Assembly (NCBI GenBank): GCA_900318685.1
Contig: ONLL01000004.1
Span: 161,527-225,526 of the forward strand
Length of the DNA stretch: 64,000 nt
Source: an uncultured Prevotellaceae bacterium
GTDB lineage: Bacteria > Bacteroidota > Bacteroidia > Bacteroidales > Bacteroidaceae
Direction of reading: 5' to 3'
In this document: positions 5,777 through 51,638 of the stretch, piece after piece
Numbering within the stretch: position 1 is the stretch's first letter
Layout: every line of letters begins with the position of its first letter
Made by a program: the position numbers and the translations under genes
Notes under the pieces: generated by a model
What the model was told of the DNA's origin: nothing
Databases searched by the model: none
What the model saw: only the letters and a program-made list of their open reading frames with translations

Positions 5777-5886
5777 GGCGTTTTGGGCTTTTCAGGGTGG
5801 CACCCTGAGGCAACTGAAGTGGCACTTTTGGTCACGAAGGAAGGCACTCTTGGTCACGAAGGTTGGCACTCTTGCTGAGGAAAGAA
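5777..5886. repeat. 22-bp tandem array (about 5 units)
   Basis: Five consecutive 22-base units start at 5777, 5799, 5821, 5843 and 5865, each beginning GGC. The third and fourth units are the most alike (GGCACTYTTGGTCACGAAGG core); the first two are diverged. The array sits between the sigma operon promoter region and the end of the MNT gene. Its core resembles units of the arrays at 13.6 kb and 51.5 kb. Confidence 0.75.
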
Positions 5887-5926
5887 GCGGAGGAAGCACA
5901 CCAAGATCGCGTTCCGAGTAGTTCAA

Positions 5927-6232
5927 TTAAGCTGCTTCGTAAAAGATTTGGGCAACCCTGTCAATATGGTCGCCAATGGGCGTGCCTTTCTCTTTCTGAT
6001 AGTCGAGCAAGTCTATCGAATATAACAATTCCAAATCATCAATCTCGCATTGTATTGCCAGCAACTGGCTATAGTCGATGCCCTGACCAACGACTGCAAG
6101 GTCGATATCAGAGCCTGCACGGTAATTGCCTTTCGACCTAGAGCCGAATATCAGAACCTTTTCGATGTTCGCATGACGGCGGAAGACATCCTGCAGTTCC
6201 CTGATGACTGTATCGCTGAGTCCAAACTTCAT
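5927..6232 (-). CDS. MNT-type minimal nucleotidyltransferase (antitoxin-like)
   Basis: A 101-residue protein with the DNA polymerase beta-like nucleotidyltransferase signature GSRSKGNYRAGSDIDLAV (residues about 31-48); G31-S32 and the D43/D45 pair form the catalytic motif. In HEPN/MNT pairs this domain adds AMP to, and neutralises, a HEPN ribonuclease. Its start ATG overlaps (ATGA) the last codons of an upstream frame that looks like the end of a HEPN/substrate-binding partner, now truncated. The enzyme itself is intact; whether it still has a target is unclear. Confidence 0.85.
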   Translation of the reverse strand: MKFGLSDTVIRELQDVFRRHANIEKVLIFGSRSKGNYRAGSDIDLAVVGQGIDYSQLLAIQCEIDDLELLYSIDLLDYQKEKGTPIGDHIDRVAQIFYEAA

Positions 6233-6336
6233 TTTTGCTGATAATCCTCGTTCTGGGATAGCAATGCCAACTGTTCATCCAACTTCTTTAACAAAGGAGC
6301 GTAATCGCTGTAGTAACGATCGTTTCTTCTCCTTAT
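6229..6336 (-). pseudogene. remnant of a HEPN/nucleotidyltransferase-substrate-binding partner gene
   Basis: Immediately upstream of the MNT gene an open frame encodes 35 residues (including DRYYSDYAPLLKKLDEQLAL) ending in a TGA that overlaps the MNT ATG. The RYY..LLKKLxExL pattern is what I expect at the C-terminus of HEPN-type partners of MNT proteins. The frame is closed by a stop at 6337-6339 and no start codon precedes the conserved part, so the 5' two thirds of the gene appear lost. The identification rests on a short stretch and on context. Confidence 0.45.
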
Positions 6337-6387
6337 TCATAAAATGTTTCGCAAACTTGTACCGTTTTCGTGTAAAAAATGATATTC

Positions 6388-6930
6388 TTACCGAAACAGC
6401 GAGAAGTTCACGCTGCCATACTGGCGATGCTCCACGAAATGGGGATGTTGCGAGAAATCGTTGTCCTTGCCGTGCTCGAAGACGAAGATGCCCTCAGGCT
6501 TCAGCAGGCTATGCCCGAAGATGAGGTCGGGAATGGTGGGCAGCTCCTTCAGGGCATAGGGCGGGTCGGCAAAGATGAAGTCGAACTGCTGGTGGCAGGA
6601 CTTAACGTAACGGAAGACATCGGCGCGAAGACACTGAACATTGAACGTCTCTCTCTCCCCTTTCAGCTTTTCAATACACTGCAGGATAAAGCGGTGATGG
6701 TCGCGGTCCTGCTCTACGCTGACCACCTGGGCACAGCCTCGCGACAAGAGCTCAAGCGTGATGCTGCCCGTGCCGGAGAAGAGGTCAAGGGCTGTAGCAC
6801 CATCAAAGTCGATGTAGCCCATCAGCACATTGAAGATATTCTCCTTTGCAAAGTCAGTCGTTGGCCTCGCCTTAAACGTGCGCGGAATGTCGAAGTGCCG
6901 CCCCTTGTATCGTCCCGTTATAATCCTCAT
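6388..6930 (-). CDS. rsmD: 16S rRNA (guanine966-N2)-methyltransferase RsmD
   Basis: Methylates G966 of 16S rRNA using S-adenosylmethionine. The 180-residue protein has the RsmD N-terminus (RIITGRYKGR), the SAM-binding LDLFSGTGSITLE motif and the catalytic DPPY motif (FIFADPPYAL). I place the start at ATG 6930; the frame is open two codons further to a TTG at 6936. The DUF3822 gene lies upstream on the same strand, separated by a 140-base spacer that is mostly tandem heptamers; the two genes are neighbours in other Bacteroidales as far as I recall. Confidence 0.93.
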   Translation of the reverse strand: MRIITGRYKGRHFDIPRTFKARPTTDFAKENIFNVLMGYIDFDGATALDLFSGTGSITLELLSRGCAQVVSVEQDRDHHRFILQCIEKLKGERETFNVQCLRADVFRYVKSCHQQFDFIFADPPYALKELPTIPDLIFGHSLLKPEGIFVFEHGKDNDFSQHPHFVEHRQYGSVNFSLFR

Positions 6931-6992
6931 TCCCAATCACTTATTACAAATCACACTCCTCCTCGCAAAAAGATCTCCGTGCGGTAGCAAAC

Positions 6993-7062
6993 TCTCAATT
7001 CTCAACTCTCATCTCTCAACTCTCAAATCTCAAATCTCAAATCTCAATTCTCAAATCTCAAA
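6993..7062. repeat. heptanucleotide tandem array (10 units)
   Basis: Ten consecutive 7-base units in perfect phase, variants of TCTCAAA (TCTCAAT, TCTCAAC, TCTCATC). It fills most of the spacer between DUF3822 and rsmD. It is not a multiple-of-three repeat, and no ORF spans it. Confidence 0.9.
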
Positions 7063-7071
7063 TCAAGACCA

Positions 7072-7875
7072 TCACCTCCCTTTCACTACCAGCGCCTGCA
7101 AGTCGAAGGGAATGCCCTTGACCTTCGTCACAGGATGCTGGTTGAAGTCGGCAGAGGGATTGACCACCAGCACCTTCTTCAGAAACGCACGCAGCTCGGT
7201 CGTCACAGTCTCATCATCCGAGATGTCACCCATCAGATGCAGCTCGTCGGCCTCAGCATCCATCTGCAGCTCCTTCCAAACGTAAGCGATGAAGAACACT
7301 GCATCCTTGCTGCGGCTGGCATCGAAGGAATTGCTGAACCTGAAACGATTCTGCTGAAACGAGAAGAGCTCCAGGCGCTTCTCGTGGAAATAGGCATAGA
7401 GCTTGCGGTTCTTGCCTGTAAAGCTGCGCTGATGCAGATAGCGCCACAGCGGCTGCAGCACCGTCACCATCCGCACATCGCGGAAATGATCGTCGAGCAC
7501 CAGCTTCAGGTCTTTGTTCACAGAGAAGACGGCCACCGCATGAAGGTCGGGCAGCACATTATAGGTCACTTTATCCTGCTCCTGACGAGGGAAGGCATGA
7601 TAGTAGAGCTGCTCCATCACCGACTCATCGAACAACTCCACAGGCACCAGCATCACATCGGAGTCGATCAGCACACGAACTCTCGGAGGGCTCTGCAGCA
7701 GCAGGTCGCTAGTCTTGAAGGCCTCACGAAGGTTGGCAGCCATCGATACGCCGCTCTTCACCACAAACGGCTCATATACAACATCATCGCTGCCGTCGCT
7801 CTGGGCGAGCATCGCTATGTTGTTGCGCCCGATGCGCATAGTCAATCGTTGCTTGTTGTTACTCATTTCTGACAT
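7072..7875 (-). CDS. DUF3822 family protein
   Basis: A 267-residue cytosolic protein of the Bacteroidota-specific DUF3822 family, which has an actin-like/PilM-like ATPase fold by family knowledge but no assigned function. There is no signal peptide or membrane segment. Two ATG starts are plausible, 7875 and 7866; both overlap the end of the small membrane protein gene, which suggests translational coupling. The neighbourhood (rsmD downstream) is typical of the family. Confidence 0.8.
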   Translation of the reverse strand: MSEMSNNKQRLTMRIGRNNIAMLAQSDGSDDVVYEPFVVKSGVSMAANLREAFKTSDLLLQSPPRVRVLIDSDVMLVPVELFDESVMEQLYYHAFPRQEQDKVTYNVLPDLHAVAVFSVNKDLKLVLDDHFRDVRMVTVLQPLWRYLHQRSFTGKNRKLYAYFHEKRLELFSFQQNRFRFSNSFDASRSKDAVFFIAYVWKELQMDAEADELHLMGDISDDETVTTELRAFLKKVLVVNPSADFNQHPVTKVKGIPFDLQALVVKGR

Positions 7876-7999
7876 CTCTCAGCTCTTGACGTTTGTCTGC
7901 AGCACGTTGCTCATGGACTACACTCCTGATGCAGATGGCCAGCAAAACGACCACCAGCACCACCAAAACGGCGTTAGCCCACTGCTCACTGCGTTTCAT
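7859..7999 (-). CDS. 46-residue single-pass membrane protein
   Basis: A short frame with ATG at 7999 encodes 46 residues: a six-residue charged start (MKRSEQW), one strongly hydrophobic helix (ANAVLVVLVVVLLAICI) and a charged, basic/acidic tail. The stop codon overlaps the start of the DUF3822 gene, and a TACTTTTG promoter box lies 10 bases upstream of the ATG. The arrangement supports a real gene. I do not recognise the family; function unknown. Confidence 0.65.
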   Translation of the reverse strand: MKRSEQWANAVLVVLVVVLLAICIRSVVHEQRAADKRQELRDVRNE

Positions 8000-8008
8000 A
8001 TTTGAATG

Positions 8009-8016
8009 CAAAAGTA
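8009..8016 (-). promoter_or_regulatory. -7 element for the small membrane protein/DUF3822/rsmD unit
   Basis: TACTTTTG on the minus strand ends 10 bases before the ATG at 7999, giving a very short predicted leader. Confidence 0.5.
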
Positions 8017-8097
8017 ATGAAAAGTTTGGAGTTTGGCATGAGGAGACAGAAGTAATTTGCCGCTGCTTAACATTTTTTGTGTGTTCGTGAGGAAAAA

Positions 8098-8132
8098 ACT
8101 CCTCACTCCTCGCTCCTAACTCCTAACTCTTT
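8098..8132. repeat. heptanucleotide tandem array abutting a promoter (5 units)
   Basis: Five 7-base units (ACTCCTC twice, GCTCCTA, ACTCCTA, ACTCTTT) end two bases before the -7 box of the helicase gene. They therefore occupy the position between the -33 and -7 elements and upstream. Confidence 0.85.
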
Positions 8133-8134
8133 TG

Positions 8135-8142
8135 TACCTTTG
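8135..8142 (+). promoter_or_regulatory. -7 element for the helicase gene, leaderless candidate
   Basis: TACCTTTG is followed only four bases later by the ATG at 8147, so transcription would begin at or next to the start codon. Confidence 0.55.
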
Positions 8143-8146
8143 CACC

Positions 8147-9643
8147 ATGATTACGGATGAACTGACATACAGAATCCGCCAGAACTTCGGACTAGTGCCC
8201 ACAGCTGAGCAGGAGCAGGCCATGAGCGTGTTTGCCAGCTTTCTCACCGACAGGTCACCACAGGCCGTGATGATCCTGCGCGGCTCGGCTGGCACCGGCA
8301 AGACCACACTGGCCGCTGCCATCGTGCGCACCTTGCTGGCGCTGAAGCAGAAACTGATACTGCTGGCTCCCACGGGAAGGGCTGCAAAGGTGTTCTCGCT
8401 CTATGCCGGCAACCCTGCATACACCATCCATCGTCACATCTACCGACAGCGGACGGCGGGCGACCTCTCGGCATTCAATCTGAATGACAATCTGCACCGC
8501 GACACCTTGTTCATCATCGACGAGGCATCGATGATCTCCAATACGCCCATCGACAACAACTTCGGATCGGGATGCCTGCTCGACGACCTCATACGCTATG
8601 TCTATCAAGGGCAGAACTGCCGCATGCTGCTCATCGGCGACCGGGCGCAGCTGCCGCCCATAGGCGAGGAGGGAGAGGCTCCGGCACTCAGCGCAGCTAC
8701 GCTGCAGGGCTACGGGCTCGACGTCTATGAGGCCGACCTCAACGAGGTGCTGCGACAGAGTCAGGAGTCGGGCATCCTCTACAATGCCACCGTCGTCCGA
8801 CAGATGATCACACACGACGAAGTGCCTCTGCTGCCCAAAATCCGCTTCCAGGGATTTCCCGACATTGTCAATGTCCCGGGCGATGAACTGATCGACGCGC
8901 TGTCAACGAGCTTCAGTAACGTTGGCACTGACGAGACCATCGTCGTCACTCGCTCCAACAAGCGGGCCAACATCTACAACATGGGCATACGCAACACCGT
9001 CCTCGACCGTGAGGAAGAGCTCTGTCGCGGCGATAAGCTCATGATCGTGAAGAACAACTATCATTGGAAACCTACCCCCTACCCTTCCCGAACAGAAGGA
9101 GAGACGGAGTACTCCAAGGGCCAAGCGGCTGACCTTCCCTCCCGCACGGGAGGGGCTGGAGGCGGGTTCCTGGCTAATGGCGACCACTGCGTAGTGCAAC
9201 GTGTAAGGAATGTTCGCGAGCTTTACGGCTTTCGCTTTGCCGACATCACCATCCGGCTGCCCGACTATGATGACTGCGAACTGACGGTAACAGCCATCCT
9301 CGACACGCTCAGGGCTGAGGCTCCGGCTCTGACAAGGACTCAGCAGGAGCAGCTGTTCAATCAAGTAGTGGAGGACTATGCCGACATACCCCTCAAGGCC
9401 GACCGCATCAAAGCCCTGAGAAACGATGTCTACTACAATGCGCTGCAGGTGAAGTACGGTTATGCCGTGACCTGTCACAAGGCGCAGGGCGGCCAATGGG
9501 CGCATGTCTACATCGATCAGGGATACATGACCGACGACATGCTCTCGCCCGACTACATCCACTGGCTCTACACCGCTCTCACCCGGGCCACCGAAAAGGT
9601 GTTCCTCGTCAACTGGCCCGCTACACAAACAAAAGAACTATGA
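8147..9643 (+). CDS. RecD-like ATP-dependent DNA helicase (AAA/UvrD_C_2)
   Basis: A 498-residue superfamily 1 helicase. Walker A GSAGTGKTT is at residues 46-54, Walker B FIIDEAS with D125/E126, and the C-terminal motif YAVTCHKAQGGQW typical of RecD/UvrD_C_2 near residue 443. ATG 8147 is chosen because the promoter box ends at 8142; a TTG at 8132 would lie inside the promoter. Residues about 307-341, just before GFLANGD, are an insertion encoded by a 105-bp element with inverted arms whose length is exactly 35 codons. It falls in a loop between motifs. The gene overlaps the next by ATGA. Confidence 0.9.
   Translation: MITDELTYRIRQNFGLVPTAEQEQAMSVFASFLTDRSPQAVMILRGSAGTGKTTLAAAIVRTLLALKQKLILLAPTGRAAKVFSLYAGNPAYTIHRHIYRQRTAGDLSAFNLNDNLHRDTLFIIDEASMISNTPIDNNFGSGCLLDDLIRYVYQGQNCRMLLIGDRAQLPPIGEEGEAPALSAATLQGYGLDVYEADLNEVLRQSQESGILYNATVVRQMITHDEVPLLPKIRFQGFPDIVNVPGDELIDALSTSFSNVGTDETIVVTRSNKRANIYNMGIRNTVLDREEELCRGDKLMIVKNNYHWKPTPYPSRTEGETEYSKGQAADLPSRTGGAGGGFLANGDHCVVQRVRNVRELYGFRFADITIRLPDYDDCELTVTAILDTLRAEAPALTRTQQEQLFNQVVEDYADIPLKADRIKALRNDVYYNALQVKYGYAVTCHKAQGGQWAHVYIDQGYMTDDMLSPDYIHWLYTALTRATEKVFLVNWPATQTKEL
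9066..9170. repeat. 105-bp element with inverted arms, in frame inside the helicase gene
   Basis: The left arm (GGAAACCTACCCCCTACCC at its start) and the right arm (GGAGGCGGGTTCC at its end) are imperfect inverted copies of about 36 bases. Each contains its own small dyad, for example CTCCCGCACGGGAG. Length is 105 bases, so the frame is kept. Composition and palindromes differ from the flanking coding sequence, suggesting insertion of a short mobile or BIME-like repeat. Confidence 0.65.
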
Positions 9644-10176
9644 ACTATCAACAAATAATCGACAAGTATTACCCGGAGGACGATGCACTGCGCCGCCTCC
9701 TGCTGAAGCACTCACGTCAAGTGACCGACCGCTGCCTGCTCATCGCCAGCCGACACCCAGAGCTGAACGCCGACACTGCCTTCCTCGAGGAAGCCGCCAT
9801 GCTCCACGACATCGGCATACGCTGGTGTCATGCCCCTTCCATCTTCTGCGAGGGCACGGAACCATACATCCGTCACGGACTCATCGGAGCAGAGCTGCTG
9901 CGGCAAGAGGGTTACGAGCGGCACGCTCGTGTCTGCGAACGTCATACTGGTACAGGCATCACCATCGAACAGATAGAACGTCAGCACCTGCCCTTGCCGC
10001 CCGCCGACTATCAGCCCGTCAGCATCGAGGAAATCATCATCTGCTATGCCGACAAGTTCTACTCCAAGTCCCGTCCCGACCGCATCCTCACTGTCGACCA
10101 GGCAGCACAGAGCCTCGAGAAGTTCGGACACGAAGGCGTGGAGAAGTTCCTCAGCTGGGCAGAAATGCTGGAATAA
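9640..10176 (+). CDS. HD-domain phosphohydrolase
   Basis: A 178-residue protein with an HD metal-binding pair (H55-D56 in AAMLHDIGIR) and a second histidine in the next helices, as in small HD hydrolases of the YqeK/uncharacterised HDIG type. The likely reaction is phosphohydrolysis of a nucleotide, but the substrate cannot be read. The start is the ATG overlapping the helicase stop (ATGA); a longer upstream frame is the shadow of the helicase gene. Translationally coupled to the helicase. Confidence 0.85.
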   Translation: MNYQQIIDKYYPEDDALRRLLLKHSRQVTDRCLLIASRHPELNADTAFLEEAAMLHDIGIRWCHAPSIFCEGTEPYIRHGLIGAELLRQEGYERHARVCERHTGTGITIEQIERQHLPLPPADYQPVSIEEIIICYADKFYSKSRPDRILTVDQAAQSLEKFGHEGVEKFLSWAEMLE

Positions 10177-10308
10177 CCACTCTTCAAAAGATCTCTTAAC
10201 ACCGAAAATCCCCACAAATCGGCGACGAATCAATTGCTATTTCTTGGGAAATGCTTGGATTGATGCGTTAAACTATCGTAAACGGGGCGATATTCGGGAT
10301 TTTTGATG

Positions 10309-10316
10309 TAATTTTG
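10309..10316 (+). promoter_or_regulatory. -7 element for lptD
   Basis: TAATTTTG ends five bases before the GTG at 10322, so the lptD mRNA would have almost no leader. No clear TTTG element is seen 20 bases upstream. Confidence 0.45.
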
Positions 10317-10321
10317 CAGCC

Positions 10322-13300
10322 GTGAAACAAAGAACGGGTACACTAATCTTCGTGCTGGCCTTCATGCTTCTGTGGGCCTGCACGCCGTCGTCGCTCTTCA
10401 AGGGTGGATCCCAGAAGGAGACGACTGGAACGGTGTTACCTCCCGACAATCCTACCCAAAGCACTCCGGATGATAGTCTGAAGACCCCGACGAAGGATCT
10501 GCCGGCCGATACTGTCCCCAAGGACACCATCCCCGTTGAGGTCATTCCCACCGACAGCATTCTTGCCGACAGCATTCCTGCTGACAGCATTCTCACAGAC
10601 AGTATCCTTGCTGACAGCACGGCTACGCAGGCCCTCAGCGACAGCATCGAAGCCCCTGTCGACATCAATCGTCCTGCCCACGCCGCCCTGAAGCGCGACA
10701 CTACCACAATGGACTCGCTCGAGCTGGCCATCTATAAATACAATAAGGTGATTGACGACTCGCTGCGACTCGACTCCCTGAACCGTCAGAAGAAGAACGG
10801 CATCGATGCGCCTGTGGTGTTCTCGGCCAAGGACTCGCTCATCTACGAGGCTGCTACGGGTATGGCCCACCTCTTCGGCGACAGCCACGTGGAATACCAG
10901 AACATGGACCTGCAGAGCGACAAGATATACATGTGCCTTGACTCCTCGCTCGTACATGCAACGGGCAGTCGCGACACCACCGGAATGCTGCAGGGAACGC
11001 CTGTGTTCAAGATGGGCAGCGACACTTATGAGAACGACACGATGGCCTTCAACTTCAAGACGAAGAAAGGACTCATCAAGCAGGTGTACACGGAGCAGGA
11101 GGAGGGATTCCTCACCGCAGAGATAGCAAAGCGAGGTGCCAACGGCGAGCTCTTCCTGGGAAAAGGACGCTATACCACCTGCGATGCCCCCCACCCCGAC
11201 TTCTACTTCGCTATGTCGAGGGCTAAGGTACGTCCCGGAAAGGACGTGGTCTTCGGACCTACTTACCTCGTCGTATGCGACGTGCCGCTGCCGCTGGCCG
11301 TTCCCTATGGCTTCTTCCCCTTCACCCAGAGCTACTCCTCGGGATTCATCATGCCTACCTATGGTGACGAGACGGAACGAGGATTCTACCTGCGCGACGG
11401 AGGATATTACTTCGCCGTCAGCGACAAAATGGACCTCAAGCTCCTCGGAGAGATCTATACCAAGGGCTCATGGGGTGCCTCTGTGGCCAGCAACTACCGC
11501 AAGCGCTACCGCTACAGCGGATCGGTCTATGCCAGCTACCAGAACACCATCAACGGCGAGAAGAACATGCCTGACTATTCCAAGCAGACTAGCTTCAAGA
11601 TACAATGGAGCCACCGACAGGACGCCAAGGCCAACCCCTTCAGCAACCTATCAGCATCGGTGAACTTCGCAACGTCGAGCTACGAGCGCAATAACCTCAC
11701 GTCGATGTACAACCCGCAGTCGATGACGCAGTCGACGCGTACATCGTCTGTATCCTACAGCACCAACTTTTCGAGCATCGGTATGACATTGTCGACGACG
11801 ATGAACCTCAACCAGAACATGAAGGACTCGACCATAGCTCTTACCTTGCCCGACCTTAACATTACCATCTCACGATTCTATCCCTTCAAGCGCAAGAAAA
11901 TGGCTGGTAAGGAGCGATGGTACGAGAAGATATCCATGAGCTACACCGGAAAGATATCCAACTCGATCAACACTAAGGAAGACAAGCTCATGCATTCGAA
12001 CATCATCAAGGACTGGAAGAACGGCATGCAGCACTCCATACCCATCAGCGCCAACTTCTCCATACTTGAATACATCAACGTCAACCCGTCGTTCAACTTC
12101 ACCGACCGCACCTATTCCAACAAGATCATGAAGTCGTGGGACAACGTCAGGAACCAGGAGGTCAACGACACCGTCTACGGATTCTACAATGTCTACAACT
12201 GGAACCTGTCACTATCCGCATCCACTAAGCTCTACGGATCATACATCCCCTCCCGCAAGATCTTCGGCGACAAGATCGACCGCATACGCCACGTCTTCAC
12301 CCCTAGTCTCAGCTTCAGCTATGCGCCCGACTTCAGCGCCGACCGCTACGGCTACTATCAGACCTACCAGAAGACCGATGCCGAAGGCAACGTCACCCTC
12401 GTTGAGTACTCACCCTACACCAGCGGCATGTTTGGCGTGCCTGGAAAGGGAAAGACGGGAAGCATTTCCTTCGACATGTCGAACAACATCGAGATGAAAA
12501 TCAAGAACGACGAGGACACCATCAGCGGCTTCAAGAAAGTGTCAATCATCGACGAGCTGGGAGCATCGATGTCCTACAACCTCTCGGCAAAGACTCGCCC
12601 CTGGAGTGACCTCAGCACACGTCTGCGACTGAAGATCACCAAGAGCTACACCTTCAACCTCAACGCTGTCTTCGCCAGCTATGTCTATGAGGCCGACTCT
12701 GTAGGAGCCACACCGCGTGTCAGCGACACACAGACTTACTGGGGCATGGGCAAGATCGGACGGTTCCAGGGTATGTCGCAGAACCTGAGCTACTCTATCA
12801 GCAATGAGAAGGTGGCCAAGATCATCAAATGGCTCAAGGGTGAGCGCGACGAGGACGAGAAGAGCAAGAGAAAGCGAAACAGCGATGAGGACGACGAATA
12901 CGACGAAGAGGATGAGAACGAGGTAGAGACCAATATCGACCACGATCTGGAGAAAGGAAAGCACGGAGCTAAGCGCAAAGCGGCCACCGATGCCGAGACC
13001 GACGAGGACGGTTACCTTCCCTTCTCACTGCCCTGGTCGCTCAGCTTCGGCTATGGTATCACCATGCGTGAGGACAACGATGTGAAGCGCTTCAACTATA
13101 ATACTATGCGCTATCCCTACAAGTTCACGCAGAACCTGAACGTCAGCGGTAACATCCGCATCTCCGATGGCTGGAACATATCTTTCTCCTCGGGTTACGA
13201 CTTCGATTACAAGAAAATATCGATGACGACGGCATCACTCAGCCGCGACCTGCACTGCTTCAGCATGTCGTGCTCCATCACGCTGGCACCTTACACCAGC

Positions 13301-13396: not shown

Positions 13397-13420
13397 CAGC
13401 TCGGCAAACCATACTTTGAA

Positions 13421-13618
13421 ACTACCCGAAGACCTTCTTCGACATGCTAATAGCTCTTCCTAGGCATGCTAATAGCTCTTCTTCGACATGCTAATAGCTC
13501 TTCCTAGGCATGCTAATAGCTCTTCCTAGACATGCTAATAGCTCTTCTTCGACATACTAATAGCTCAAGTCGGGCTGCTTAGTGGCCGAACTTCGACATC
13601 AAAGGCATAGATGCGTTA
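13421..13618. repeat. 22-bp tandem array A (about 9 units)
   Basis: Nine units in register from 13421. Six of them, starting at 13443, 13465, 13487, 13509, 13531 and 13553, begin CAT and contain CTAATAGCTC; variants end alternately in CTAGG/CTAGA or TTCGA. The outer units (13421, 13575, 13597) keep only the period and the edge bases. Lies between the convergent ends of lptD and the phosphatase gene. Confidence 0.92.
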
Positions 13619-13798
13619 AAGTAAAACAACTTGTTTTACCTTCGAAAGTCGGCTACTTTGGTCAGCAAAGTCGGCCACTTTGATAAGTAAAACAACTTGT
13701 TTTACTTTCAGCAGAGGCCCACTTTCCATTTCTTATTACGCCACTTACCAATCCTTGTTCCGTCACTTACCATTCCTTCTTCCGTCATTTCTCTCTCC
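13601..13798. repeat. 22-bp tandem array B (9 units, different register)
   Basis: Units begin at 13601, 13623, 13645, 13667, 13689, 13711, 13733, 13755 and 13777. Those at 13645 and 13667 share AAAGTCGGCYACTTTG. Those at 13623 and 13689 share AAAACAACTTGTTTTAC, a 9-bp inverted repeat around one base. The last two share ACTTACCAWTCC-type sequence. The register differs by 4 bases from array A, and the two arrays overlap slightly at their edges. Confidence 0.85.
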
Positions 13799-13837
13799 AA
13801 AGCGGTGTCCTTTAACGACATTTACCGCCCTCTCCTG

Positions 13838-29316: not shown

Positions 29317-29600
29317 GGCTATGATATGGCAGTAGGCTCATAGAGCCAGTGCTTCGTGACCTATACCTTACGGGTAGAGGCGCAGTAGGACGTACATCTT
29401 AGGGAAAAAGGTCGGGGCTGAAAGGGAGAAAGAACGGAACTATCAGGGAGAAAGGACGGAGCTCTCGTATTCGCAGCGGGCGGGAAAAACATCGGCAGCG
29501 GACGCTGCTGATATCGGCAGCAGCCGGGGATAATATCGGCAGCGGCTGCTGCGTACCATTTTTTACGGCCATGATATAGCAGTAAGCACATGGATCCAGG
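29317..29600. repeat. imperfect ~34-bp direct repeats flanking a 22-bp array
   Basis: Sequence at 29317-29350 (GGCTATGATATGGCAGTAGG at its start) recurs at 29567-29600 (GGCCATGATATAGCAGTAAG at its start), 250 bases apart, with about 80 percent identity. Between them lies the seven-unit array. The pair may mark the ends of an inserted or duplicated element. Confidence 0.65.
29402..29555. repeat. 22-bp tandem array (7 units, two sub-types)
   Basis: Seven units in exact register: three begin GGGARAAAG (29402, 29424, 29446), one is transitional (29468) and three contain ATCGGCAGC (29490, 29512, 29534). It lies between convergent gene ends. The GC-rich half can fold through its own CAGCG/GCTGC complementarity. 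Confidence 0.88.
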
Positions 29601-29697
29601 GGGGCTAGTCGGCCACCCGAAAAAGTAGAACAATTGTTTTAGTTCATCAACCCTACGATCTTCATCCACTAGCCCGAAATGAGGGGGTACAAACATC

Positions 29698-43367: not shown

Positions 43368-44806
43368 TCGTGGTTATTCACTGTCTTTAAAACTTGCTCA
43401 TTAACCTGGAAAGAATAGCGGCGACGTAGGTCTGCCACCCATTCCTTTTCCAACTGCTCCTGATAGTCAGCCACTACAAGCCCACGTACGTCAGTATAGT
43501 CTTCAGGACCTTTCTTCAGAACCTTGCCAAAATGGGCATCAATAGGATAATCTTTCAAGGAAGTCACCGTAGTGTCTTTCTTGAACACGACTTTGTCAAT
43601 ATAGGCATTATCACCAAGCTTAAAGATTCCTTTTTCCACACGGATACGGATGACCGAGTCAGCATTGAACGTGGACCGAAGAGCCTCTGCCCAATGGTCA
43701 AACGGCAGTTTTTTCACGCAGTTCTTCACAGCTTTCACGTCACCCTTTTCCTTGACATGATAGGCGATGCCCTTGAAACGTGGCTCATCCCAGGCATAGT
43801 TGTTTTTGTGGCTCTTGAAATAAGCGGCCAGCCCAGCCTCGTCTTTAGCAGCCTTGTCCCACACCAAATTATTACTGATCTCGTAGAGCAGCAGTCCATC
43901 ATGATACTCCTGGATGAGATAACGTAACTCCATGTCGTTCTTCGACAACTCATTGGTTTTCTGTTCCATCAGCTGTTCCTGAGTCATCTGGCCATTACTC
44001 TCTGCCAACATCTTATCAACCTTCTGCTGGGCAATCTGGTCGCGTATGTTCCGCTGCTCCATAAAACGCAAAATAGCATCATGGTGCTCCTCAAACGGCT
44101 CCAGCATCTTGCGCTCCTTCATCAAGATGATATGATAGCCATAGGCAGACTTCACCACCCCCGACATCTCACCAGGCTGCAAGGCAAAAGCGGCATCCTC
44201 ATACTCCTTCACTAACTGGCCGTGCTGAACAAAAGGCAGTTCTCCACCCTGTCGAGCGGAACCGGGATCCTGCGAGAGACGAGTGGCCAAGTCAGCAAAG
44301 TCAGCACCATTCTTCAGGGCTGTGTAGATGGAGTCGATACGAACCTTTGCAGCATCCCATTCCGATTGAGGTGCCTGCTGGTCGGCGCGAAGTAAGATAT
44401 GAGCTGTCTTAATCAGTCCATCAGGACCTATGCGCTCCACCGTCTCATCGTAAATCTTATGAGCCTCAGCCTCCATGTCCTCATCTGTCACGAGCATCGG
44501 CATAACCTGCTGGTCACGATATTGCGCAAACTCCTTCTTATACGATGTCAGCGTGTCATAATGTGCATCAATGGCTGCGGCGACCTTGAGCTTATAGTTG
44601 ATGAAAAGGTCGACATATTCTTCCACAGTCTTCTTGTCGATAACACCTTCAGAATTGTTCTTGTTATATGAATACTCGAACTCTGACCTCAGCACGGGAG
44701 AGCCGTTGACCGTCATAATGACAGGGTCATTTGTCGTCTGTGCCTGCAGTTCCACAGTATAGGAGGCTGCAAGCATGAGCATCACTGCTGTTGCTGTTTT
44801 CTTCAT
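43364..44806 (-). CDS. periplasmic peptidyl-prolyl isomerase (PpiC/parvulin)
   Basis: A 480-residue exported protein. Signal peptide MKKTATAVMLMLAASYTVELQA; N-terminal helical chaperone-like part (VNGSPVLRSEFEYSYNK); one good parvulin domain (IKTAHILLRADQ through DPGSARQGGELPFVQHGQLV to YGYHIILMKER, about residues 130-230); then a long helical tail. It belongs with the adjacent SurA-like protein as a pair of envelope foldases. It lies 24 bases downstream of guaB, with no hairpin between. Confidence 0.88.
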   Translation of the reverse strand: MKKTATAVMLMLAASYTVELQAQTTNDPVIMTVNGSPVLRSEFEYSYNKNNSEGVIDKKTVEEYVDLFINYKLKVAAAIDAHYDTLTSYKKEFAQYRDQQVMPMLVTDEDMEAEAHKIYDETVERIGPDGLIKTAHILLRADQQAPQSEWDAAKVRIDSIYTALKNGADFADLATRLSQDPGSARQGGELPFVQHGQLVKEYEDAAFALQPGEMSGVVKSAYGYHIILMKERKMLEPFEEHHDAILRFMEQRNIRDQIAQQKVDKMLAESNGQMTQEQLMEQKTNELSKNDMELRYLIQEYHDGLLLYEISNNLVWDKAAKDEAGLAAYFKSHKNNYAWDEPRFKGIAYHVKEKGDVKAVKNCVKKLPFDHWAEALRSTFNADSVIRIRVEKGIFKLGDNAYIDKVVFKKDTTVTSLKDYPIDAHFGKVLKKGPEDYTDVRGLVVADYQEQLEKEWVADLRRRYSFQVNEQVLKTVNNHE

Positions 44807-44830
44807 TGAAATATCTAAATTATTATAAAA

Positions 44831-46327
<1,497 letters not shown>

Positions 46328-46337
46328 TTATTGCGTG

Positions 46338-46345
46338 CAAAGGTA
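46338..46345 (-). promoter_or_regulatory. -7 element of the guaB operon
   Basis: TACCTTTG on the minus strand, 26 bases before the ATG at 46312. The -33 position falls at the edge of the heptamer array and is not canonical. Confidence 0.6.
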
Positions 46346-46352
46346 CAAATAA

Positions 46353-46470
46353 TAATTGAGGTTTGAGATTTGAGATTTGAGATTTATACGCAGTCTTGTT
46401 ATTTTTTAACACAAGCTATGCCTTTTTAAGCAATCTAATGCCCTAAATCTCATTCCTCAAATCTCAAACC
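46353..46470. repeat. heptamer array and its inverted copy upstream of guaB
   Basis: Four heptamers (GAGGTTT, then GAGATTT three times) occupy 46358-46385. A segment at 46448-46470 is nearly the reverse complement (CTCAAATCTCAAACC core), giving a stem of about 22 bases around an 80-base loop. It lies in the 169-base gap between recQ and guaB. Confidence 0.75.
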
Positions 46471-46481
46471 CAATTATCTTA

Positions 46482-48668
46482 TCAGTTTGCCATATCCGAG
46501 ATGAACTTGATACGAACCAAACGGATTTCATCCTCTGAGATGTCACTGCCGAACTCATCGTAGGCAGCCTGCAGGTCATCGGTTTCCTGATCTGCAAAGA
46601 AGTCACAGATGTCACGTATGTCCTCTGGGTCCATAATCTCATTGAGGAAGTAGTCGATGTTAATCTTATTACCACTATAAAGGACGATACCCTCAAGCTC
46701 GTCGAGCATCTCGTCGAAGTCTATGCCCAATGCGTTGGCAATGTCATCGAGAGCAATACGGCGGTCGATATTCTGAAGAATCTTCAGCTTGCGCATCGAG
46801 TCCTTGGCTTTAGTGCGTACGCGCAGGTCCGTCTGCCGTTCAATATCATTCTCTTCGCAATAACGCTTAATAAGCTCAACAAACTCCTTTGCATAGGGCT
46901 GACGCGTTTTCCCATCGCCCACACCCTGGATGTTCTTCAGTTCCTCGAGTGTGACTGGGTAGTAGGTGGCCATCTGCTCAATCGACACGTCTTGGAAGAT
47001 GACATATCCTGGGCGCTCCAGCTTCCGCGACCACTTCTTCCGCAAATCATGAAGCATGGCCGACAGTGTAGGATCCAGAGCGCTAGTACCTCCTTCGTTG
47101 TTAATGGCATCTTCATCTTCACTAAACTCGTGGTCCTCAACCACCTTGAATGATCGTGGATTCTTCAGGAACTTCTTTCCAGCACTTGTCACCTTCAGCA
47201 AGCCATAGTTCTCCACCTCTTTCTTCAGGTAGCCCATAATCAGTGCCTGACGGATGACAGGGCTCCAGATCTTTGGATTCTCATCCTCTCCCGAACCGAA
47301 CTCATCCAGTTCATCGTGTTTATGAGCAATGATTTCATCAGTATCACGTCCTGTGATAAAATCAATGACATAGTCACTGCGGAAGTTCTCCTTGATAGCA
47401 AGAATAGCATTGATGGCAATAACCAGCTGGTCGCGCGCTTCAATCTTTTCTCCAGGATGCAAGCAGTTGTCGCAGTTATGACAATTATCTTCTTTGTACT
47501 CCTCACCAAAGTAGTGGAGCAACATCTTTCTGCGACACACAGAAGTCTCAGCATAGGCTGCCGTCTCCTGAAGCAACTGTCGGCCGATATCCTGCTCAGC
47601 TACGGGTTTGCCCTCCATGAACTTATCCAGTTTCTGGAGGTCCTTATAACTATAGAAGGCGATGCAGAGGCCTTCTCCTCCGTCACGCCCAGCACGCCCT
47701 GTCTCCTGATAATAGCCTTCCAGCGACTTGGGGATGTCATAATGAATGACAAATCTCACATCAGGCTTGTCGATGCCCATGCCGAAAGCGATGGTTGCCA
47801 CAATCACATCTATTTTCTCCATGAGGAAGTCGTCCTGTGTCTGGGTGCGCGTGGCAGTATCCAAGCCTGCATGATAGCACTGTGCCTTGATATCATTGGC
47901 TCGTAACACCTCCGCCAGGTCTTCCACCTTTTTGCGTGAAAGGCAATAGATAATGCCGCTCTTGCCTGGATGCTGTTTGATGAATCGTACGATATCCTTA
48001 TCTATCTCCTTCGTCTTCTGACGCACCTCATAATAGAGATTCGGACGATTAAATGACGATTTGAACTCCTTTGCATCGATGATGCCCAGGTTCTTCTTGA
48101 TGTCAGTACGCACCTTATCTGTTGCCGTAGCAGTAAGAGCTATCACGGGAGCCTTTCCTATCTCATTGATAATTGGCCTGATACGACGATACTCCGGACG
48201 GAAATCATGCCCCCATTCTGATATGCAATGTGCCTCATCGACAGCATAGAATGAAACTTTCACTGACCTAAGGAACTCCACATTGTCCTCCTTAGTCAGT
48301 GACTCCGGAGCCACATAGAGCAGTTTGGTGCGCCCTTCGCGGATATCGGACTTCACTTGGTCAATAGCCGTCTTGTTCAGCGAGGAATTGAGAAAGTGTG
48401 CAGTCCCCTCCTCCTCACTCAGGTTGGCGATGAAGTCCACCTGGTTCTTCATTAAAGCGATGAGAGGTGAGATGACGATTGCCACACCGTCCATCAACAG
48501 CGACGGCAACTGATAACACAATGACTTGCCGCCACCTGTTGGCATCAACACAAAAGTATCATTACCATCAAGCACATTTCGGATGATGGCTTCTTGGTCG
48601 CCCTTAAATGTATCGAAACCAAAATAGCGTTTCAGGGCTTTTGTCAGATCTTTCTTGTCTGTCGTCAT
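46482..48668 (-). CDS. recQ: ATP-dependent DNA helicase RecQ
   Basis: A 3'-5' helicase for recombination and replication repair. The 728-residue protein has Walker A TGGGKSLCYQ near residue 45, DEAHCISEWGHDFRPEY (motif II with the RecQ aromatic loop), QETGRAGRDG (motif VI), the zinc-binding cysteines (CRRKMLL...CHNCDNCL) and an HRDC domain (RQPYAKEF region). It is longer than E. coli RecQ by an acidic C-terminal extension after the HRDC domain. ATG 48668 is used (MTTDKKDLTKALKRYFGF). It is 13 bases after clpX, so probably cotranscribed. Confidence 0.95.
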   Translation of the reverse strand: MTTDKKDLTKALKRYFGFDTFKGDQEAIIRNVLDGNDTFVLMPTGGGKSLCYQLPSLLMDGVAIVISPLIALMKNQVDFIANLSEEEGTAHFLNSSLNKTAIDQVKSDIREGRTKLLYVAPESLTKEDNVEFLRSVKVSFYAVDEAHCISEWGHDFRPEYRRIRPIINEIGKAPVIALTATATDKVRTDIKKNLGIIDAKEFKSSFNRPNLYYEVRQKTKEIDKDIVRFIKQHPGKSGIIYCLSRKKVEDLAEVLRANDIKAQCYHAGLDTATRTQTQDDFLMEKIDVIVATIAFGMGIDKPDVRFVIHYDIPKSLEGYYQETGRAGRDGGEGLCIAFYSYKDLQKLDKFMEGKPVAEQDIGRQLLQETAAYAETSVCRRKMLLHYFGEEYKEDNCHNCDNCLHPGEKIEARDQLVIAINAILAIKENFRSDYVIDFITGRDTDEIIAHKHDELDEFGSGEDENPKIWSPVIRQALIMGYLKKEVENYGLLKVTSAGKKFLKNPRSFKVVEDHEFSEDEDAINNEGGTSALDPTLSAMLHDLRKKWSRKLERPGYVIFQDVSIEQMATYYPVTLEELKNIQGVGDGKTRQPYAKEFVELIKRYCEENDIERQTDLRVRTKAKDSMRKLKILQNIDRRIALDDIANALGIDFDEMLDELEGIVLYSGNKINIDYFLNEIMDPEDIRDICDFFADQETDDLQAAYDEFGSDISEDEIRLVRIKFISDMAN

Positions 48669-48681
48669 AGGCTTGCCATTA

Positions 48682-49902
48682 TTACTTGAGATATGCCTTG
48701 TCAAGTTGACTGTTCACATACTCAGCAGTTACTTCAAATTTCTTTACTCTCTTCGATGGCACTTCAAACATAGCATCCATCATTACGCTCTCGACAATAG
48801 AGCGCAAACCACGGGCACCAAGCTTAAACTCCACCGCCTTGTCTACAATCGTCTCCAGCGCGTCATCCGTGAATGTCAGTTCAATACCATCCATAGCAAA
48901 CAGCTTGGTATACTGCTTCACAATGGAGTTCTTCGGCTCAATCAAGATGCGACGGAGGGCATCACGATCCAGGGGATTCAGATAAGTCAGGATCGGCAGA
49001 CGACCGATAATCTCAGGAATCAATCCAAAAGACTTCAAGTCTTGCGGCTGAACATACCTCATCAAATCGTCCTTGTCAATTTTACGAACATTCTGCACAG
49101 AGTTGTAACCCACAGTATGGGTATTCAGTCGCTGGGCAATCTTACGCTCGATGCCGTCAAAGGCACCTCCGCAGATAAACAGGATATTACGTGTGTCCAC
49201 GTGGATATACTCCTGTTCGGGATGTTTTCTGCCTCCCTGTGGAGGAACATTCACGATGGTGCCCTCCAGCAGTTTCAGCAGTCCCTGCTGCACACCTTCG
49301 CCACTGACATCACGTGTGATGGAAGGATTATCAGACTTGCGGGCAATCTTGTCAATCTCATCGATGAACACGATGCCCCTCTCAGCTGTCTCCACATTGA
49401 AGTCAGCCACCTGCAGTAGTCGTGACAAGATACTCTCCACATCCTCACCCACATAACCTGCCTCCGTGAATACAGTGGCATCGACAATAGTGAAGGGCAC
49501 ATCAAGCTGCTTGGCAATTGTACGGGCCAAAAGGGTCTTGCCTGTGCCGGTAGGTCCGACGAGAATGATGTTCGATTTCTCTATCTCTACTCCGTCTTTA
49601 TCATCCTTCGGTTGCTGCAGACGCTTATAGTGGTTATACACAGCGACCGAAAGGAAACGCTTTGCCTCATCCTGACCTATTACATACTGGTCCAGATGCT
49701 CTTTGATCTCCTTGGGCTTAGGCACCCTCTTCAGGCTGAACTTGGCATTGCTGTCTCTCCCAGATGCCTTGTCATAGCCCTGCTCTTTCACTATCTGATA
49801 GGCCTGCTGGGCACAATCCTCACAGATGTACCCGTTGATTCCCGTGATGAGCAATTTCACTTCACGGTCACTACGCCCACAGAAGCTACACTGTTTCTTC
49901 AT
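48682..49902 (-). CDS. clpX: ATP-dependent Clp protease ATP-binding subunit ClpX
   Basis: AAA+ unfoldase that feeds substrates to ClpP. The 406-residue protein has the N-terminal zinc-binding domain (CSFCGRS...YICEDC), Walker [12 protein letters not shown], Walker [12 protein letters not shown], and the conserved C-terminal small domain ending near the AAA sensor-2 arginine ([10 protein letters not shown]). The start overlaps the clpP stop by 4 bases, giving translational coupling. Confidence 0.97.
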
Positions 49903-50561
49903 TTCTTCTTCAACACCTGGTCAATCATTCCATACTCGCGAGCCTCTTCCGCCGTCATCCAGTAATTACGGTCACTGTCGGCCCATACCTTGTCATAGTC
50001 AGTATGTGAGTGTTCAGCAATGATAGTATACAACTCTTTCTTCAACTTCTGTATCTCACGCGCCTCAATCTCAATGTCAGATGCCTGACCCTGAACACCA
50101 CCCAGAGGCTGGTGAATCATCACGCGGCTATGCGTCAGAGCCGAGCGTTTGCCCTCCTGACCAGCCACCAGCAATACTGCTGCCATCGAAGCTGCCATAC
50201 CCGTGCAGATAGTGGCCACATCAGAGGTAATAAACTGCATGGTGTCGTAGATGCCCAGTCCGGCATGTACGCTGCCACCAGGAGAGTTGATATAAATAGA
50301 GATGTCCTTGCCCGGGTCCACAGAGTCCAGGTAGAGCAGCTGAGCCTGAAGCGTGTTGGCTGTATAGTCGTCAATCTGTGTGCCAAGGAAGATGATGCGG
50401 TCCATCATCAGGCGGCTGAAGACATCCATCTGCGTCACGTTCAACTGACGCTCCTCCAGGATGTAGGGGTTGAGATACTGGGCCTGAGCCTTCATCACAT
50501 CGTCGAGCACCTGGCCATTCATACTCAGGTGCTGAGTTGCATATTTTCTGAAATCATTCAT
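49899..50561 (-). CDS. clpP: ATP-dependent Clp protease proteolytic subunit ClpP
   Basis: Serine peptidase ring of the Clp protease. The 220-residue protein has the nucleophile in [12 protein letters not shown] and the catalytic histidine in [11 protein letters not shown] 50561 is preferred ([14 protein letters not shown]); a TAATTTTG promoter lies 34 bases upstream, which excludes the longer frame. First gene of clpP-clpX-recQ. In relatives I recall tig directly upstream; here an HU-like gene on the other strand intervenes. Confidence 0.97.
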
Positions 50562-50594
50562 AGTCCTTATTTCTTGATTTTTCACTTGGAGATA

Positions 50595-50602
50595 CAAAAT
50601 TA
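50595..50602 (-). promoter_or_regulatory. -7 element of clpP-clpX-recQ
   Basis: TAATTTTG on the minus strand, 34 bases before the ATG at 50561. Confidence 0.55.
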
Positions 50603-50690
50603 GGGAAAAAAATCGAAAGACATGCATTTTTTAAGTTTTTTTTCGAGTTTTTTTTTCGTCAAAACACTTGCCGATGAGAGAAAAGTTTCG

Positions 50691-50698
50691 TACCTTTG
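50691..50698 (+). promoter_or_regulatory. -7 element of the HU-like gene
   Basis: TACCTTTG, 40 bases before the ATG at 50738. It is divergent to the clpP promoter. Confidence 0.6.
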
Positions 50699-50737
50699 AG
50701 CCGAAATTGCATAATTGCACAATCATCCGACCGAATT

Positions 50738-51370
50738 ATGAGAAGAAACAAAGCCAGAATACCATTCGTGCTGCAGCCAGGGCCAGCAAAGGGTCCTGAC
50801 GGCAAGCCGCTGCTTTACGCCCAGCTGGATCCCACCAGAAAGCTGACCCTCAACGAATTGGAACTCGACATCCGAGGGTATGCCAACTACTCGATGGGCG
50901 AGTTCAAGCGCCTGTTTGAGGTGTTCGCTCAGTTGGCTGGGAAGTACATCGCAGAAGGCTATCGCATCGTGACGCCCCTCGGCTCATTTGCCCCCAAGCT
51001 GAAGATGACGCTCCCGGCAACCGATCCGGCTCTCGTGCGTAACGCCTCTGCATCCTTGGCAGGTGTGGAGTTCATACCGTCGGGGACGCTCAATAACATT
51101 ATCAAAGAGCACTTCGCAGGGTGCGAGAAGCTGAATACGCGGGTGGGGAATGGCCAGATGTATGACCCCAAGGCTATGGACAAAGCCTTGAAGAATGCTT
51201 TGAAAACCACCGGTCACATGACCATCAAGGCCTTCTGTTATCATAGCGGCCTAAAGCGCGACTCGGCCAAGCGCTTTCTCGACGGGCTGTGCGGGGGGCA
51301 GGAGCCCAGGCTCATCCGCCAAAAGATTGGCGGCACGTTCGTCTACTCTCCCTCCAAAAGAATCGACTGA
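50738..51370 (+). CDS. HU-like (HIG-type) DNA-binding protein
   Basis: A 210-residue protein. Residues about 30-110 match the Bacteroidota HU-like histone family: a helical arm (LTLNELELDIRGYANYSMGEFKRLFEVF) followed by a GYRIVTPLGSFAPKLKM strand pattern. The second half is basic and ends in a winged/beta-like segment (GGTFVYSPSKRID). It has its own promoter and sits between tig and clpP on the opposite strand, next to a 22-bp array. Likely a nucleoid or site-specific DNA-binding protein; the binding site is unknown. Confidence 0.72.
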   Translation: MRRNKARIPFVLQPGPAKGPDGKPLLYAQLDPTRKLTLNELELDIRGYANYSMGEFKRLFEVFAQLAGKYIAEGYRIVTPLGSFAPKLKMTLPATDPALVRNASASLAGVEFIPSGTLNNIIKEHFAGCEKLNTRVGNGQMYDPKAMDKALKNALKTTGHMTIKAFCYHSGLKRDSAKRFLDGLCGGQEPRLIRQKIGGTFVYSPSKRID

Positions 51371-51396
51371 AAACAAGCAGTGGCTGTTACGAGCGA

Positions 51397-51638
51397 ACGC
51401 TAGACAGCTTTCGGGCGGACGCCAAACGACTTTCGAGCGCCCGCCCGAAAGCCTTCGGACGAACGCTTGCAATCTGCAAACCCAGCTACTTCGGAACGCG
51501 AAGGCTGCTACTTCGGAACGCAAAGGCAGCTACTTTGGAACGCAAAGACTGCTACTTCGGAACGCAAAGGCCGCTACTTCGGAACGCAAAGGCTGCTACT
51601 TCGGAACGCAAAGGCTGCTACTTCGGTATACAAAGCAA
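51397..51638. repeat. 22-bp tandem array (11 units)
   Basis: Eleven units in exact register from 51397. The last seven (51485 to 51638) are near-identical with core GCTACTTCGGAACGCAAAGG; the first four (51397, 51419, 51441, 51463) are diverged, sharing the ACGC start and a TTTCG element. It lies downstream of the HU-like gene, between it and the convergent end of tig. All three forward frames stay partly open through it because of the repeat, not because of coding. Confidence 0.95.

What the first reader, a model, noticed from the sequence alone, without database searches (positions are those of the whole stretch)
5777..51638. A dispersed family of 22-bp-period arrays whose units differ but share a core
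Arrays at 5777-5886, 13421-13798, 29402-29555 and 51397-51638 all have exactly 22-base periods. Units from three of them align on a core near GCnACTTTGGnnnGCAAAG (array at 5.8 kb, array B at 13.6 kb, array at 51.5 kb), while other units have unrelated sequence with the same period. Units within an array are more alike than between arrays, which suggests local expansion. Three of four arrays lie between convergent gene ends. Porphyromonas gingivalis has tandem-repeat MITEs of similar unit size (BrickBuilt elements), a possible distant parallel. A period conserved without a conserved sequence is unusual and suggests a length-measuring process.
Basis: partly seen in the sequence, partly recalled or inferred. 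Interest (0 to 1): 0.78.

Follow-up and report, generated by a model that had tools for sequence, protein, structure and literature searches.

The report
Palindromic DNA modules every 22 bases
In rumen Prevotella bacteria the DNA between genes carries scattered arrays of short mirror-image modules whose letters differ from place to place but whose spacing is fixed at 22 bases, probably because an unknown two-part protein docks side by side along them.

Summary
The 22-bp arrays are real and the period is exact. In noncoding DNA from loci of 80 named relatives, lag 22 gives 30 segments; lags 19, 20, 23 and 24 give 4, 5, 2 and 2. The deeper rule is a lattice of dyads. Centres of perfect inverted repeats sit at multiples of 11 bp in this genus (140 versus 22.5 at neighbouring distances), but not in other families of the order (11 versus 17).

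The best-formed member is an 85-bp element P-Q-Q-P: two palindromes GTAAAACAASTTGTTTTAC 66 bp apart with two weaker palindromes between, centres at 0, 22, 44 and 66. One copy lies in the window at 13621-13705, in register with the array at 13719-13787. The genome has 21 pairs, all at 66 bp; 54 of 299 genus genomes have at least one. In the own genome, symmetric changes are paired within each 22-bp module, not along the long hairpin, which favours dimer-binding sites over one RNA hairpin. Copies sit in unrelated flanks, so the element disperses.

Constant-size, variable-sequence repeats of 20-23 nt are already described in other bacteria (PMC8161180). The dyad lattice and the P pair were in none of the papers found. 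Protein and function remain unknown.

The parts
5821..5874 (+). 22-bp array, 2.5 units (GGCACTCTTGGTCACGAAGGAA)
   Evidence: TRF; lag scan; units
13434..13566 (+). 22-bp array A, 6 units, also 44-bp higher order
   Evidence: TRF; lag scan
13621..13639 (.). Palindrome P1, GTAAAACAACTTGTTTTAC
   Evidence: 39 exact copies genome-wide, still 39 when one mismatch is allowed
13640..13686 (.). Interior with two weaker palindromes Q, AAAGTCGGCTACTTT (13645-13659) and AAAGTCGGCCACTTT (13667-13681), centred 22 and 44 bp from P1
   Evidence: positions; dyad tests
13687..13705 (.). Palindrome P2, 66 bp from P1
13719..13787 (+). 22-bp array B; its unit starts (13719, 13741, 13763) continue the register of CTACTTT/CCACTTT at 13653 and 13675 in the element
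   Evidence: TRF; sequence
29491..29552 (+). Weak 22-bp array (72% matches)
   Evidence: TRF; lag 44
29607..29651 (-). Decayed half element: P-like palindrome GTAGAACAATTGTTTTAG without its central base
   Evidence: nhmmer E 6e-5, no exact P; sequence
51485..51626 (+). 22-bp array, 6.5 units (GCTACTTCGGAACGCAAAGGCT); resembles the element interior only weakly
   Evidence: TRF; nhmmer E 0.07

Best explanation
The arrays belong to a genus-wide family of intergenic DNA elements made of 15-17 bp palindromic modules, one per 22 bp, on an 11-bp lattice of dyads. The best-formed member is P-Q-Q-P, with nearly invariant palindromes P at centres 0 and 66 and variable palindromes Q at 22 and 44. Most likely each module is the site of a homodimeric DNA-binding protein. 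Neighbouring dimers sit two helical turns apart on one face of the DNA and bind cooperatively, so the spacing is held while the letters drift in a symmetric way. P is the strong site and nucleates the row; the Q modules and the longer arrays are weaker extensions. Arrays grow and shrink by whole modules, and the short element spreads as a small non-autonomous unit. Shown here: the exact period, the dyad lattice, the fixed 66-bp pair, paired changes within modules, rarity of decayed P copies in the own genome, and dispersal. Inferred: the protein, its cooperativity, the nucleating role of P, and any service to the host (nucleoid or gene-end organisation).
For: Exact period in relatives chosen without regard to arrays. 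Dyad centres at multiples of 11 bp: 140 versus 22.5 (named loci), 29 versus 3.5 and 32 versus 3.75 (two other genus sets); other families 11 versus 17. P: 39 exact 19-mers, 0 more with one mismatch, reversed control 0; 13 exact 15-mers and none with 1-2 mismatches in 462 kb. 21 pairs, all at 66 bp, in the own genome. 54 of 299 genus genomes have pairs, control 0 in all; listed spacings only 64-66 (listing cut short). In the 21 own copies, arms covary at centres 0, 22, 44 and 66 (z 4.7, 2.6, 2.8, 3.4) and not at 11, 33 and 55 (0.3, -0.4, -0.1); global hairpin p 0.37. In 54 copies from other genomes the dyads peak at 22, 33 and 44 (z 5.0, 3.8, 5.2). P stays symmetric to its single central base, which a hairpin loop would not need. 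A second palindrome, AAAATAGSCTATTTT, is again spaced 22 (11 of 12 in G028; the twelfth and 3 of 4 in G358 are at 44 with a unit between) and differs from P by symmetric changes. A P pair lies upstream of a related HU-HIG gene in four genomes while the interior differs.
Against: No protein has been identified. Flanking genes share no function. P pairs are patchy (54 of 299 genomes). Dispersal in unrelated flanks also fits a plain mobile element. Y1 transposase genes occur in 10 of 16 P-bearing genomes tested against 1 of 6 without P pairs (Fisher p 0.15), a hint for the mobile rival. Own arrays show significant unit dyads in only 2 of 24 cases (15 of 33 in relatives), and none of the four window arrays tested there reached p 0.05. 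Off-lattice centres also reached z 4.6 at -15.5 and 3.6 at 45, and 3.0 at 20. One decayed P exists in the window. The 21 aligned copies were picked by exact P, so P conservation in that alignment is by construction. Across genomes the whole-element symmetry is also strong (z 6.3), and the two P centres are complementary in 34 of 54 (p 0.08). The HU-HIG gene and element could have moved together rather than stayed in place.
Confidence: 0.4

Rival explanations
1. Non-autonomous mobile element only (MITE-like or REPIN-like): P-Q-Q-P is the inverted-repeat body of a small transposable element, the 22-bp lattice is the footprint of its transposase, and there is no host function. The arrays are slippage products and wreckage.
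For: In G292 six copies share 84-133 bp of homology centred on the P pair and have unrelated flanks beyond; one copy has perfect 29-bp inverted ends. Copies in G305, G375 and G477 share a longer unit (249-538 bp) that ends inside the fetched stretches. Five own copies share 191-508 bp beside P. One relic and one single P in 462 kb. Y1 transposase in 10 of 16 P-bearing genomes tested against 1 of 6 without P pairs. Convergent bias of P pairs, 21 of 59: p 0.0007 against 17%, 0.01 against 21%, as expected if promoters are avoided.
Against: P is rarely decayed although the interiors of own copies differ by 29% on average. A P pair sits upstream of related HU-HIG genes in four genomes. No target-site duplication was recognised by eye in six G292 copies. 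Y1 transposase was not found in six P-bearing genomes: own, G134, G064, G435, G032 and G477, most of them drafts. No autonomous relative was found; other transposase families were not searched.
Confidence: 0.35
2. Length-measuring mutational process: a repair or replication enzyme makes 22-bp duplications, so the period is conserved by origin, not by use.
For: Many arrays have unrelated units with the same period. Arrays turn over fast: absent at the 51.5-kb site in 65 of 66 relatives.
Against: It does not predict dyads on an 11-bp lattice, the fixed 66-bp P pair, or arrays whose spacers have diverged while palindromes and spacing stay (for example L114 and L057).
Confidence: 0.12
3. Structured RNA: the element is transcribed and works as a long hairpin or a row of small hairpins, for example a bidirectional terminator or an RNase III substrate.
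For: Eight elements fold far better than shuffles (z -6.4 to -11.2). Apart from a tRNA, Rfam's matches at E up to 1 are microRNA precursors, far below their gathering scores. Convergent bias of P pairs. Two terminator-like sites on the minus strand touch the right end of the 51.5-kb array (6 sites in 3 kb against 3.2 in shuffles).
Against: No covariation for the long hairpin among own copies (p 0.37). Palindromes are symmetric to the central base, which a loop does not need. No consistent T-run follows P2 in the copies shown. At the 51.5-kb array a separate 20-bp stem-loop lies just beyond it.
Confidence: 0.08

Closest known systems
Bacterial tandem repeats of constant size and variable sequence (Subirana and Messeguer 2021, PMC8161180; abstract, sections 3.3 and 4 and passages read)
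   Same: Constant repeat size with variable sequence, species-specific families, noncoding; 20-23 nt repeats are said to occur in individual species of many bacterial groups. The authors already suggest a protein that needs a constant size to polymerise on DNA, and note that 20-21 nt is two helical turns.
   Different: The paper's main text holds no 'Prevotella', 'Bacteroid' or 'palindrom'. Here the period is exactly 22, the units carry dyads on an 11-bp lattice, and they include a nearly invariant palindrome pair at 66 bp.
BrickBuilt MITE of Porphyromonas gingivalis (PMC4596501; abstract and passages read)
   Same: Same order of bacteria (recalled); short tandem units inside a dispersed intergenic MITE-like element, 19 copies in strain ATCC 33277.
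   Different: 23-nt unit, one family, non-repetitive leader and tail with small inverted ends. I did not compare sequences.
REP, BIME and REPIN elements with RAYT transposases (PMC3733652, passages read; details recalled)
   Same: Dispersed extragenic palindromes, paired in inverted order, able to fold into one long hairpin.
   Different: No Y1 transposase found in six of 16 P-bearing genomes; no GTAG or CGTC tag in P; strict 22-bp and 66-bp spacing.
Iterons and tandem operators such as those of plasmid origins or lambda (recalled)
   Same: Repeated sites of about 17-22 bp, two helical turns apart, with cooperative protein binding.
   Different: Here about 20 chromosomal loci in the own genome with no shared neighbour function and unit sequences that differ between arrays.

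Membership tests
Constant-size variable-sequence tandem repeats | One repeat size over many unrelated unit sequences in a genome | tested here: met
   24 lag-22 segments in 462 kb against 0, 0, 2 and 1 at lags 19, 20, 23 and 24; only 7 of 190 unit pairs similar at 16 or more of 22
Constant-size variable-sequence tandem repeats | Noncoding, species-specific families | tested here: met
   20 of 24 own and 30 of 33 named segments noncoding; of 898 pairs of units from different relative loci only two match at 20 or more of 22, L114/L115 and L071/L073
BrickBuilt | 23-nt tandem unit | tested here: not met
   Period 22 exactly; lag 23 gives 2 segments in 462 kb against 24
BrickBuilt | Leader and tail sequences | not tested
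   No BrickBuilt sequence was at hand
REPIN/RAYT | Y1 transposase gene in the genome | tested here: inconclusive
   PF01797 found in 10 of 16 P-bearing genomes and not in 6 (G000 with 21 pairs, G134, G064, G435 with 19 pairs, G032, G477); 1 of 6 genomes without P pairs has it. Drafts may miss genes, but own and G435 have the most pairs and no hit
REPIN/RAYT | Two palindromes in inverted order forming a hairpin | tested here: met
   P pair at 66 bp; long hairpin folds with z -6.4 to -11.2 in eight elements
MITE | Dispersed copies in unrelated flanks | tested here: met
   Six G292 copies share only 84-133 bp
MITE | Terminal inverted repeats | tested here: met
   Perfect 29-bp inverted ends in one G292 copy, partial in others
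MITE | Target-site duplication | tested here: inconclusive
   None recognised by eye in six G292 copies
MITE | Parent autonomous transposon | not tested
   Only PF01797 was searched
Plasmid iterons | Sites beside a replication initiator gene | tested here: not met
   Pfam of 40 of the 42 flanking genes of own copies shows no initiator family; a VapE-like gene adjoins one element in G032

The most novel reading that the evidence does not exclude
Prevotella has a dedicated nucleoprotein system. A dimeric protein polymerises on palindromic modules at exactly two helical turns, nucleated by P pairs 66 bp apart. The modules evolve like satellite DNA with a fixed monomer length, and P acts like a conserved binding box inside drifting satellites, much as the CENP-B box does in alpha satellite (recalled). 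It would be a new kind of chromosome-organising site in bacteria, and would explain why repeat size is conserved without sequence.
Probability: 0.25. Interest if true: 0.82.

Novelty: new variant of a known kind. Interest (0 to 1): 0.62.

Why it matters
Constant-size, variable-sequence repeats have been reported in bacteria as an enigma with a guessed protein (PMC8161180). Here the guess becomes testable: the units have two-fold symmetry on an 11-bp lattice, one palindrome recurs with the same core in 54 of 299 sampled species, and its 66-bp pairing gives a short defined bait for finding the protein. It also gives a likely reason for a period without a sequence.

Tried and rejected
RAYT or IS200-type mobilisation: searched PF01797 in 22 genomes; not found in six of 16 P-bearing ones, among them the two with most pairs, so not adopted, but it is found in the other ten and in only one of six genomes without P pairs, so not excluded. 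Regulon operator: Pfam on 40 of the 42 genes flanking own copies shows no common function; three own P pairs (L012, L172, L198) fell inside an open frame of my ORF caller, which I ignored for this. HU-HIG as the partner: 23 HU-HIG matches in the own genome, but only one P element and, among the arrays read, one array lie beside one. Phage origin: 0 exact matches of the P pair or of the 19-mer in viral contigs. Rfam: nothing near a gathering score apart from a tRNA. Empty-site test at the 13.6-kb element: LptD is not found beside the phosphatase gene in the other 29 loci, so not possible. Global RNA hairpin: no covariation among own copies. Curvature by phased A-tracts: considered and dropped because many units have no A-tract. 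Literature: ten searches; none of the titles and abstract starts seen describes the P element; (exact 15-mer plus Prevotella) gave 0.
Full report
WHAT IS IN THE WINDOW. Tandem Repeats Finder gives period-22 arrays at 5821-5874, 13434-13566, 13720-13787, 29491-29552 (weak) and 51485-51626. A plain lag scan gives 4 segments at lag 22 and none at lags 20, 23 or 24. The 5 segments at lag 21 lie in arrays that also show period 7 or 14, a separate class. Two weaker palindromes, AAAGTCGGCTACTTT and AAAGTCGGCCACTTT, sit between them with centres 22 and 44 bp from the first. The unit starts of the next array (13719, 13741, 13763) continue the register of 13653 and 13675. At 29607-29651 there is a decayed half element.

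IS THE PERIOD EXACT. The window lies in a 3.96-Mb draft genome. The nearest named relatives by trigger factor are rumen Prevotella or Prevotellaceae assemblies, 84-86% identity. In 462 kb of the own genome lag 22 gives 24 segments, lags 19 and 20 give 0, lag 23 gives 2, lag 24 gives 1 and the Markov control 0. These stretches were partly chosen for core hits. The set chosen without regard to arrays is 80 loci around the trigger factor gene, 1.46 Mb: noncoding counts at lags 19 to 24 are 4, 5, 19, 30, 2 and 2; lag 21 I ascribe to multiples of 7 (lag 14 has 53). Twenty stretches of genus genomes (places chosen, hence biased) give 13 at lag 22. Twenty stretches from other families of the order (340 kb) give 0 noncoding at lag 22. 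In 38 of 39 stretches from 20 other genera of the same family (one under 1,500 bp dropped, 613 kb) there are 5 at lag 22 and none at 19, 20, 23 or 24. The feature is thus strongest in this genus and thin in some sister genera.

THE UNDERLYING LATTICE. Many units in relatives are palindromes of 15-17 bp plus 5-7 bp of linker. The column-shuffle test gave p of 0.05 or less in 15 of 33 arrays of relatives but only 2 of 24 in the own genome, and in none of the four window arrays. Independent of any repeat detection, centres of perfect inverted repeats (stem 6 or more) in intergenic DNA fall at exact multiples of 11 bp: 140 at 11-66 against a mean of 22.5 at distances 1-2 bp off in the named loci, 29 against 3.5 and 32 against 3.75 in the two other genus sets, 9 against 5.25 in other genera and 11 against 17 in other families. 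So 22 is twice an 11-bp dyad spacing.

THE P ELEMENT. The own genome has 39 exact copies of the 19-mer and still 39 when one mismatch is allowed; the reversed control is 0. With the 15-bp core and up to one mismatch there are 45, of which 44 were seen to be exact (listing). In 462 kb there are 13 exact cores and none with 1-2 mismatches. A profile search of the same 462 kb found 6 intact pairs, one single P and one decayed copy, then only weak hits (E 0.003 and above), mostly in arrays. All 21 pairs of the genome are at 66 bp. In the genus 54 of 299 genomes have a pair (15 of 130 good ones), the control is 0 in all 299, and the listed spacings are 66, sometimes 65, once 64 (listing truncated). 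In the family draw of 201 genomes, three have the 19-mer, one of them in another genus. A second palindrome AAAATAGSCTATTTT, which differs from P by symmetric changes, is found paired 12 times in G028 (11 at 22 bp, one at 44 with an altered unit between) and 4 times in G358 (1 at 22, 3 at 44 with a unit between), and in none of the other 148 genomes. G468 has P, two copies of that palindrome, and P again.

WHAT IS CONSERVED. In the 21 own copies, permuting right arms among copies shows pairing of changes at centres 0, 22, 44 and 66 (z 4.7, 2.6, 2.8, 3.4) and none at 11, 33 and 55; the long hairpin shows none (p 0.37). Off-lattice centres reached z 4.6 at -15.5 and 3.6 at 45. In 54 copies from other genomes the dyads stand out at 22, 33 and 44 (z 5.0, 3.8, 5.2); the best off-lattice value is 3.0 at 20. 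There whole-element symmetry is strong too (z 6.3), part of which may reflect words shared within a genome, and the two P centres are complementary in 34 of 54 (p 0.08). Interiors of own copies differ by 29% on average. Those copies were chosen by exact P, so the mismatch searches, not that alignment, are the evidence that P is kept. A P pair lies upstream of related HU-HIG genes in four genomes while the interior has changed; whether the site stayed in place or gene and element moved together is open.

DISPERSAL AND TURNOVER. In G292 six copies share only 84-133 bp with unrelated flanks; copies in G305, G375 and G477 share a longer unit of 249-538 bp. Five own copies share 191-508 bp beside P, including an inverted-repeat module. 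Neighbouring genes have no common role. P pairs lie between convergent genes in 21 of 59 cases with a context (3 edge and 2 coding cases left out of 64); p is 0.0007 against a 17% baseline and 0.01 against 21%, both from my own ORF calls. The 51.5-kb array is young: in 65 of 66 relatives that show both genes tig and clpP are adjacent without it; the 66th has its own insertion and a different 22-bp array.

READING. Symmetry inside each module, tolerance of symmetric change, fixed spacing and rarity of decayed P fit rows of dimer-binding sites two helical turns apart. Mobility explains the spread but not by itself the upkeep of P. A Y1 transposase is present in 10 of 16 P-bearing genomes tested and in 1 of 6 without P pairs (Fisher p 0.15), which keeps a REPIN-like origin alive, although own and G435, with 21 and 19 pairs, show none. 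I give the binding-lattice model 0.40 and the purely mobile model 0.35; they overlap. Neither the protein nor the function was found.

AGAINST KNOWN KINDS. Constant-size, variable-sequence repeats, with 20-23 nt repeats in many groups, are in print (PMC8161180; abstract, sections 3.3 and 4 and passages read), so the general phenomenon is not new. The dyad lattice, the P pair and the Prevotella case were in none of the papers found by my ten searches, of which I saw titles and abstract starts, and passages of five papers.

Noticed in passing
window 560-610, 765-818, 1817-1868, 6988-7064: Separate class of 7-bp tandem arrays (periods 7, 14, 21, 28), also common in relatives (53 noncoding segments at lag 14 in the 80 named loci).
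   Followed up: no
L213, L222, L223, L227, L173, L218; own L021, L034, L172, L194, L197: Inverted-repeat modules (TGTCACT..AGTGACA with a loop of about 34-42 nt; own version AATATCACAATATCACC..GGTGATATTTGTGATATT) lie near several P pairs, again with species-specific letters.
   Followed up: partly
window 49899-53120: An HU-HIG gene plus the 22-bp array lies between clpP and tig, which are adjacent in 65 of 66 relatives; L056 has a kinase-like gene plus another 22-bp array at the same place.
   Followed up: partly
G000 whole genome: 23 HU-HIG family matches (PF18291) in this genome and 30 in G003.
   Followed up: no
window 58195-58359: 77-bp tandem repeat, 2.1 copies, 93% match; 77 is 7 x 11 but no link to the lattice was tested.
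   Followed up: no
G032 L217:1015-3038, G006 L222: VapE-like gene, P element, then HU-HIG gene in a row in G032, with the same stretch about 75% identical in G006.
   Followed up: partly
G215:C120:12403 and G032:C79:57840: The interiors of the P elements of a genome of another genus and of G032 look identical; transfer or contamination was not resolved.
   Followed up: no
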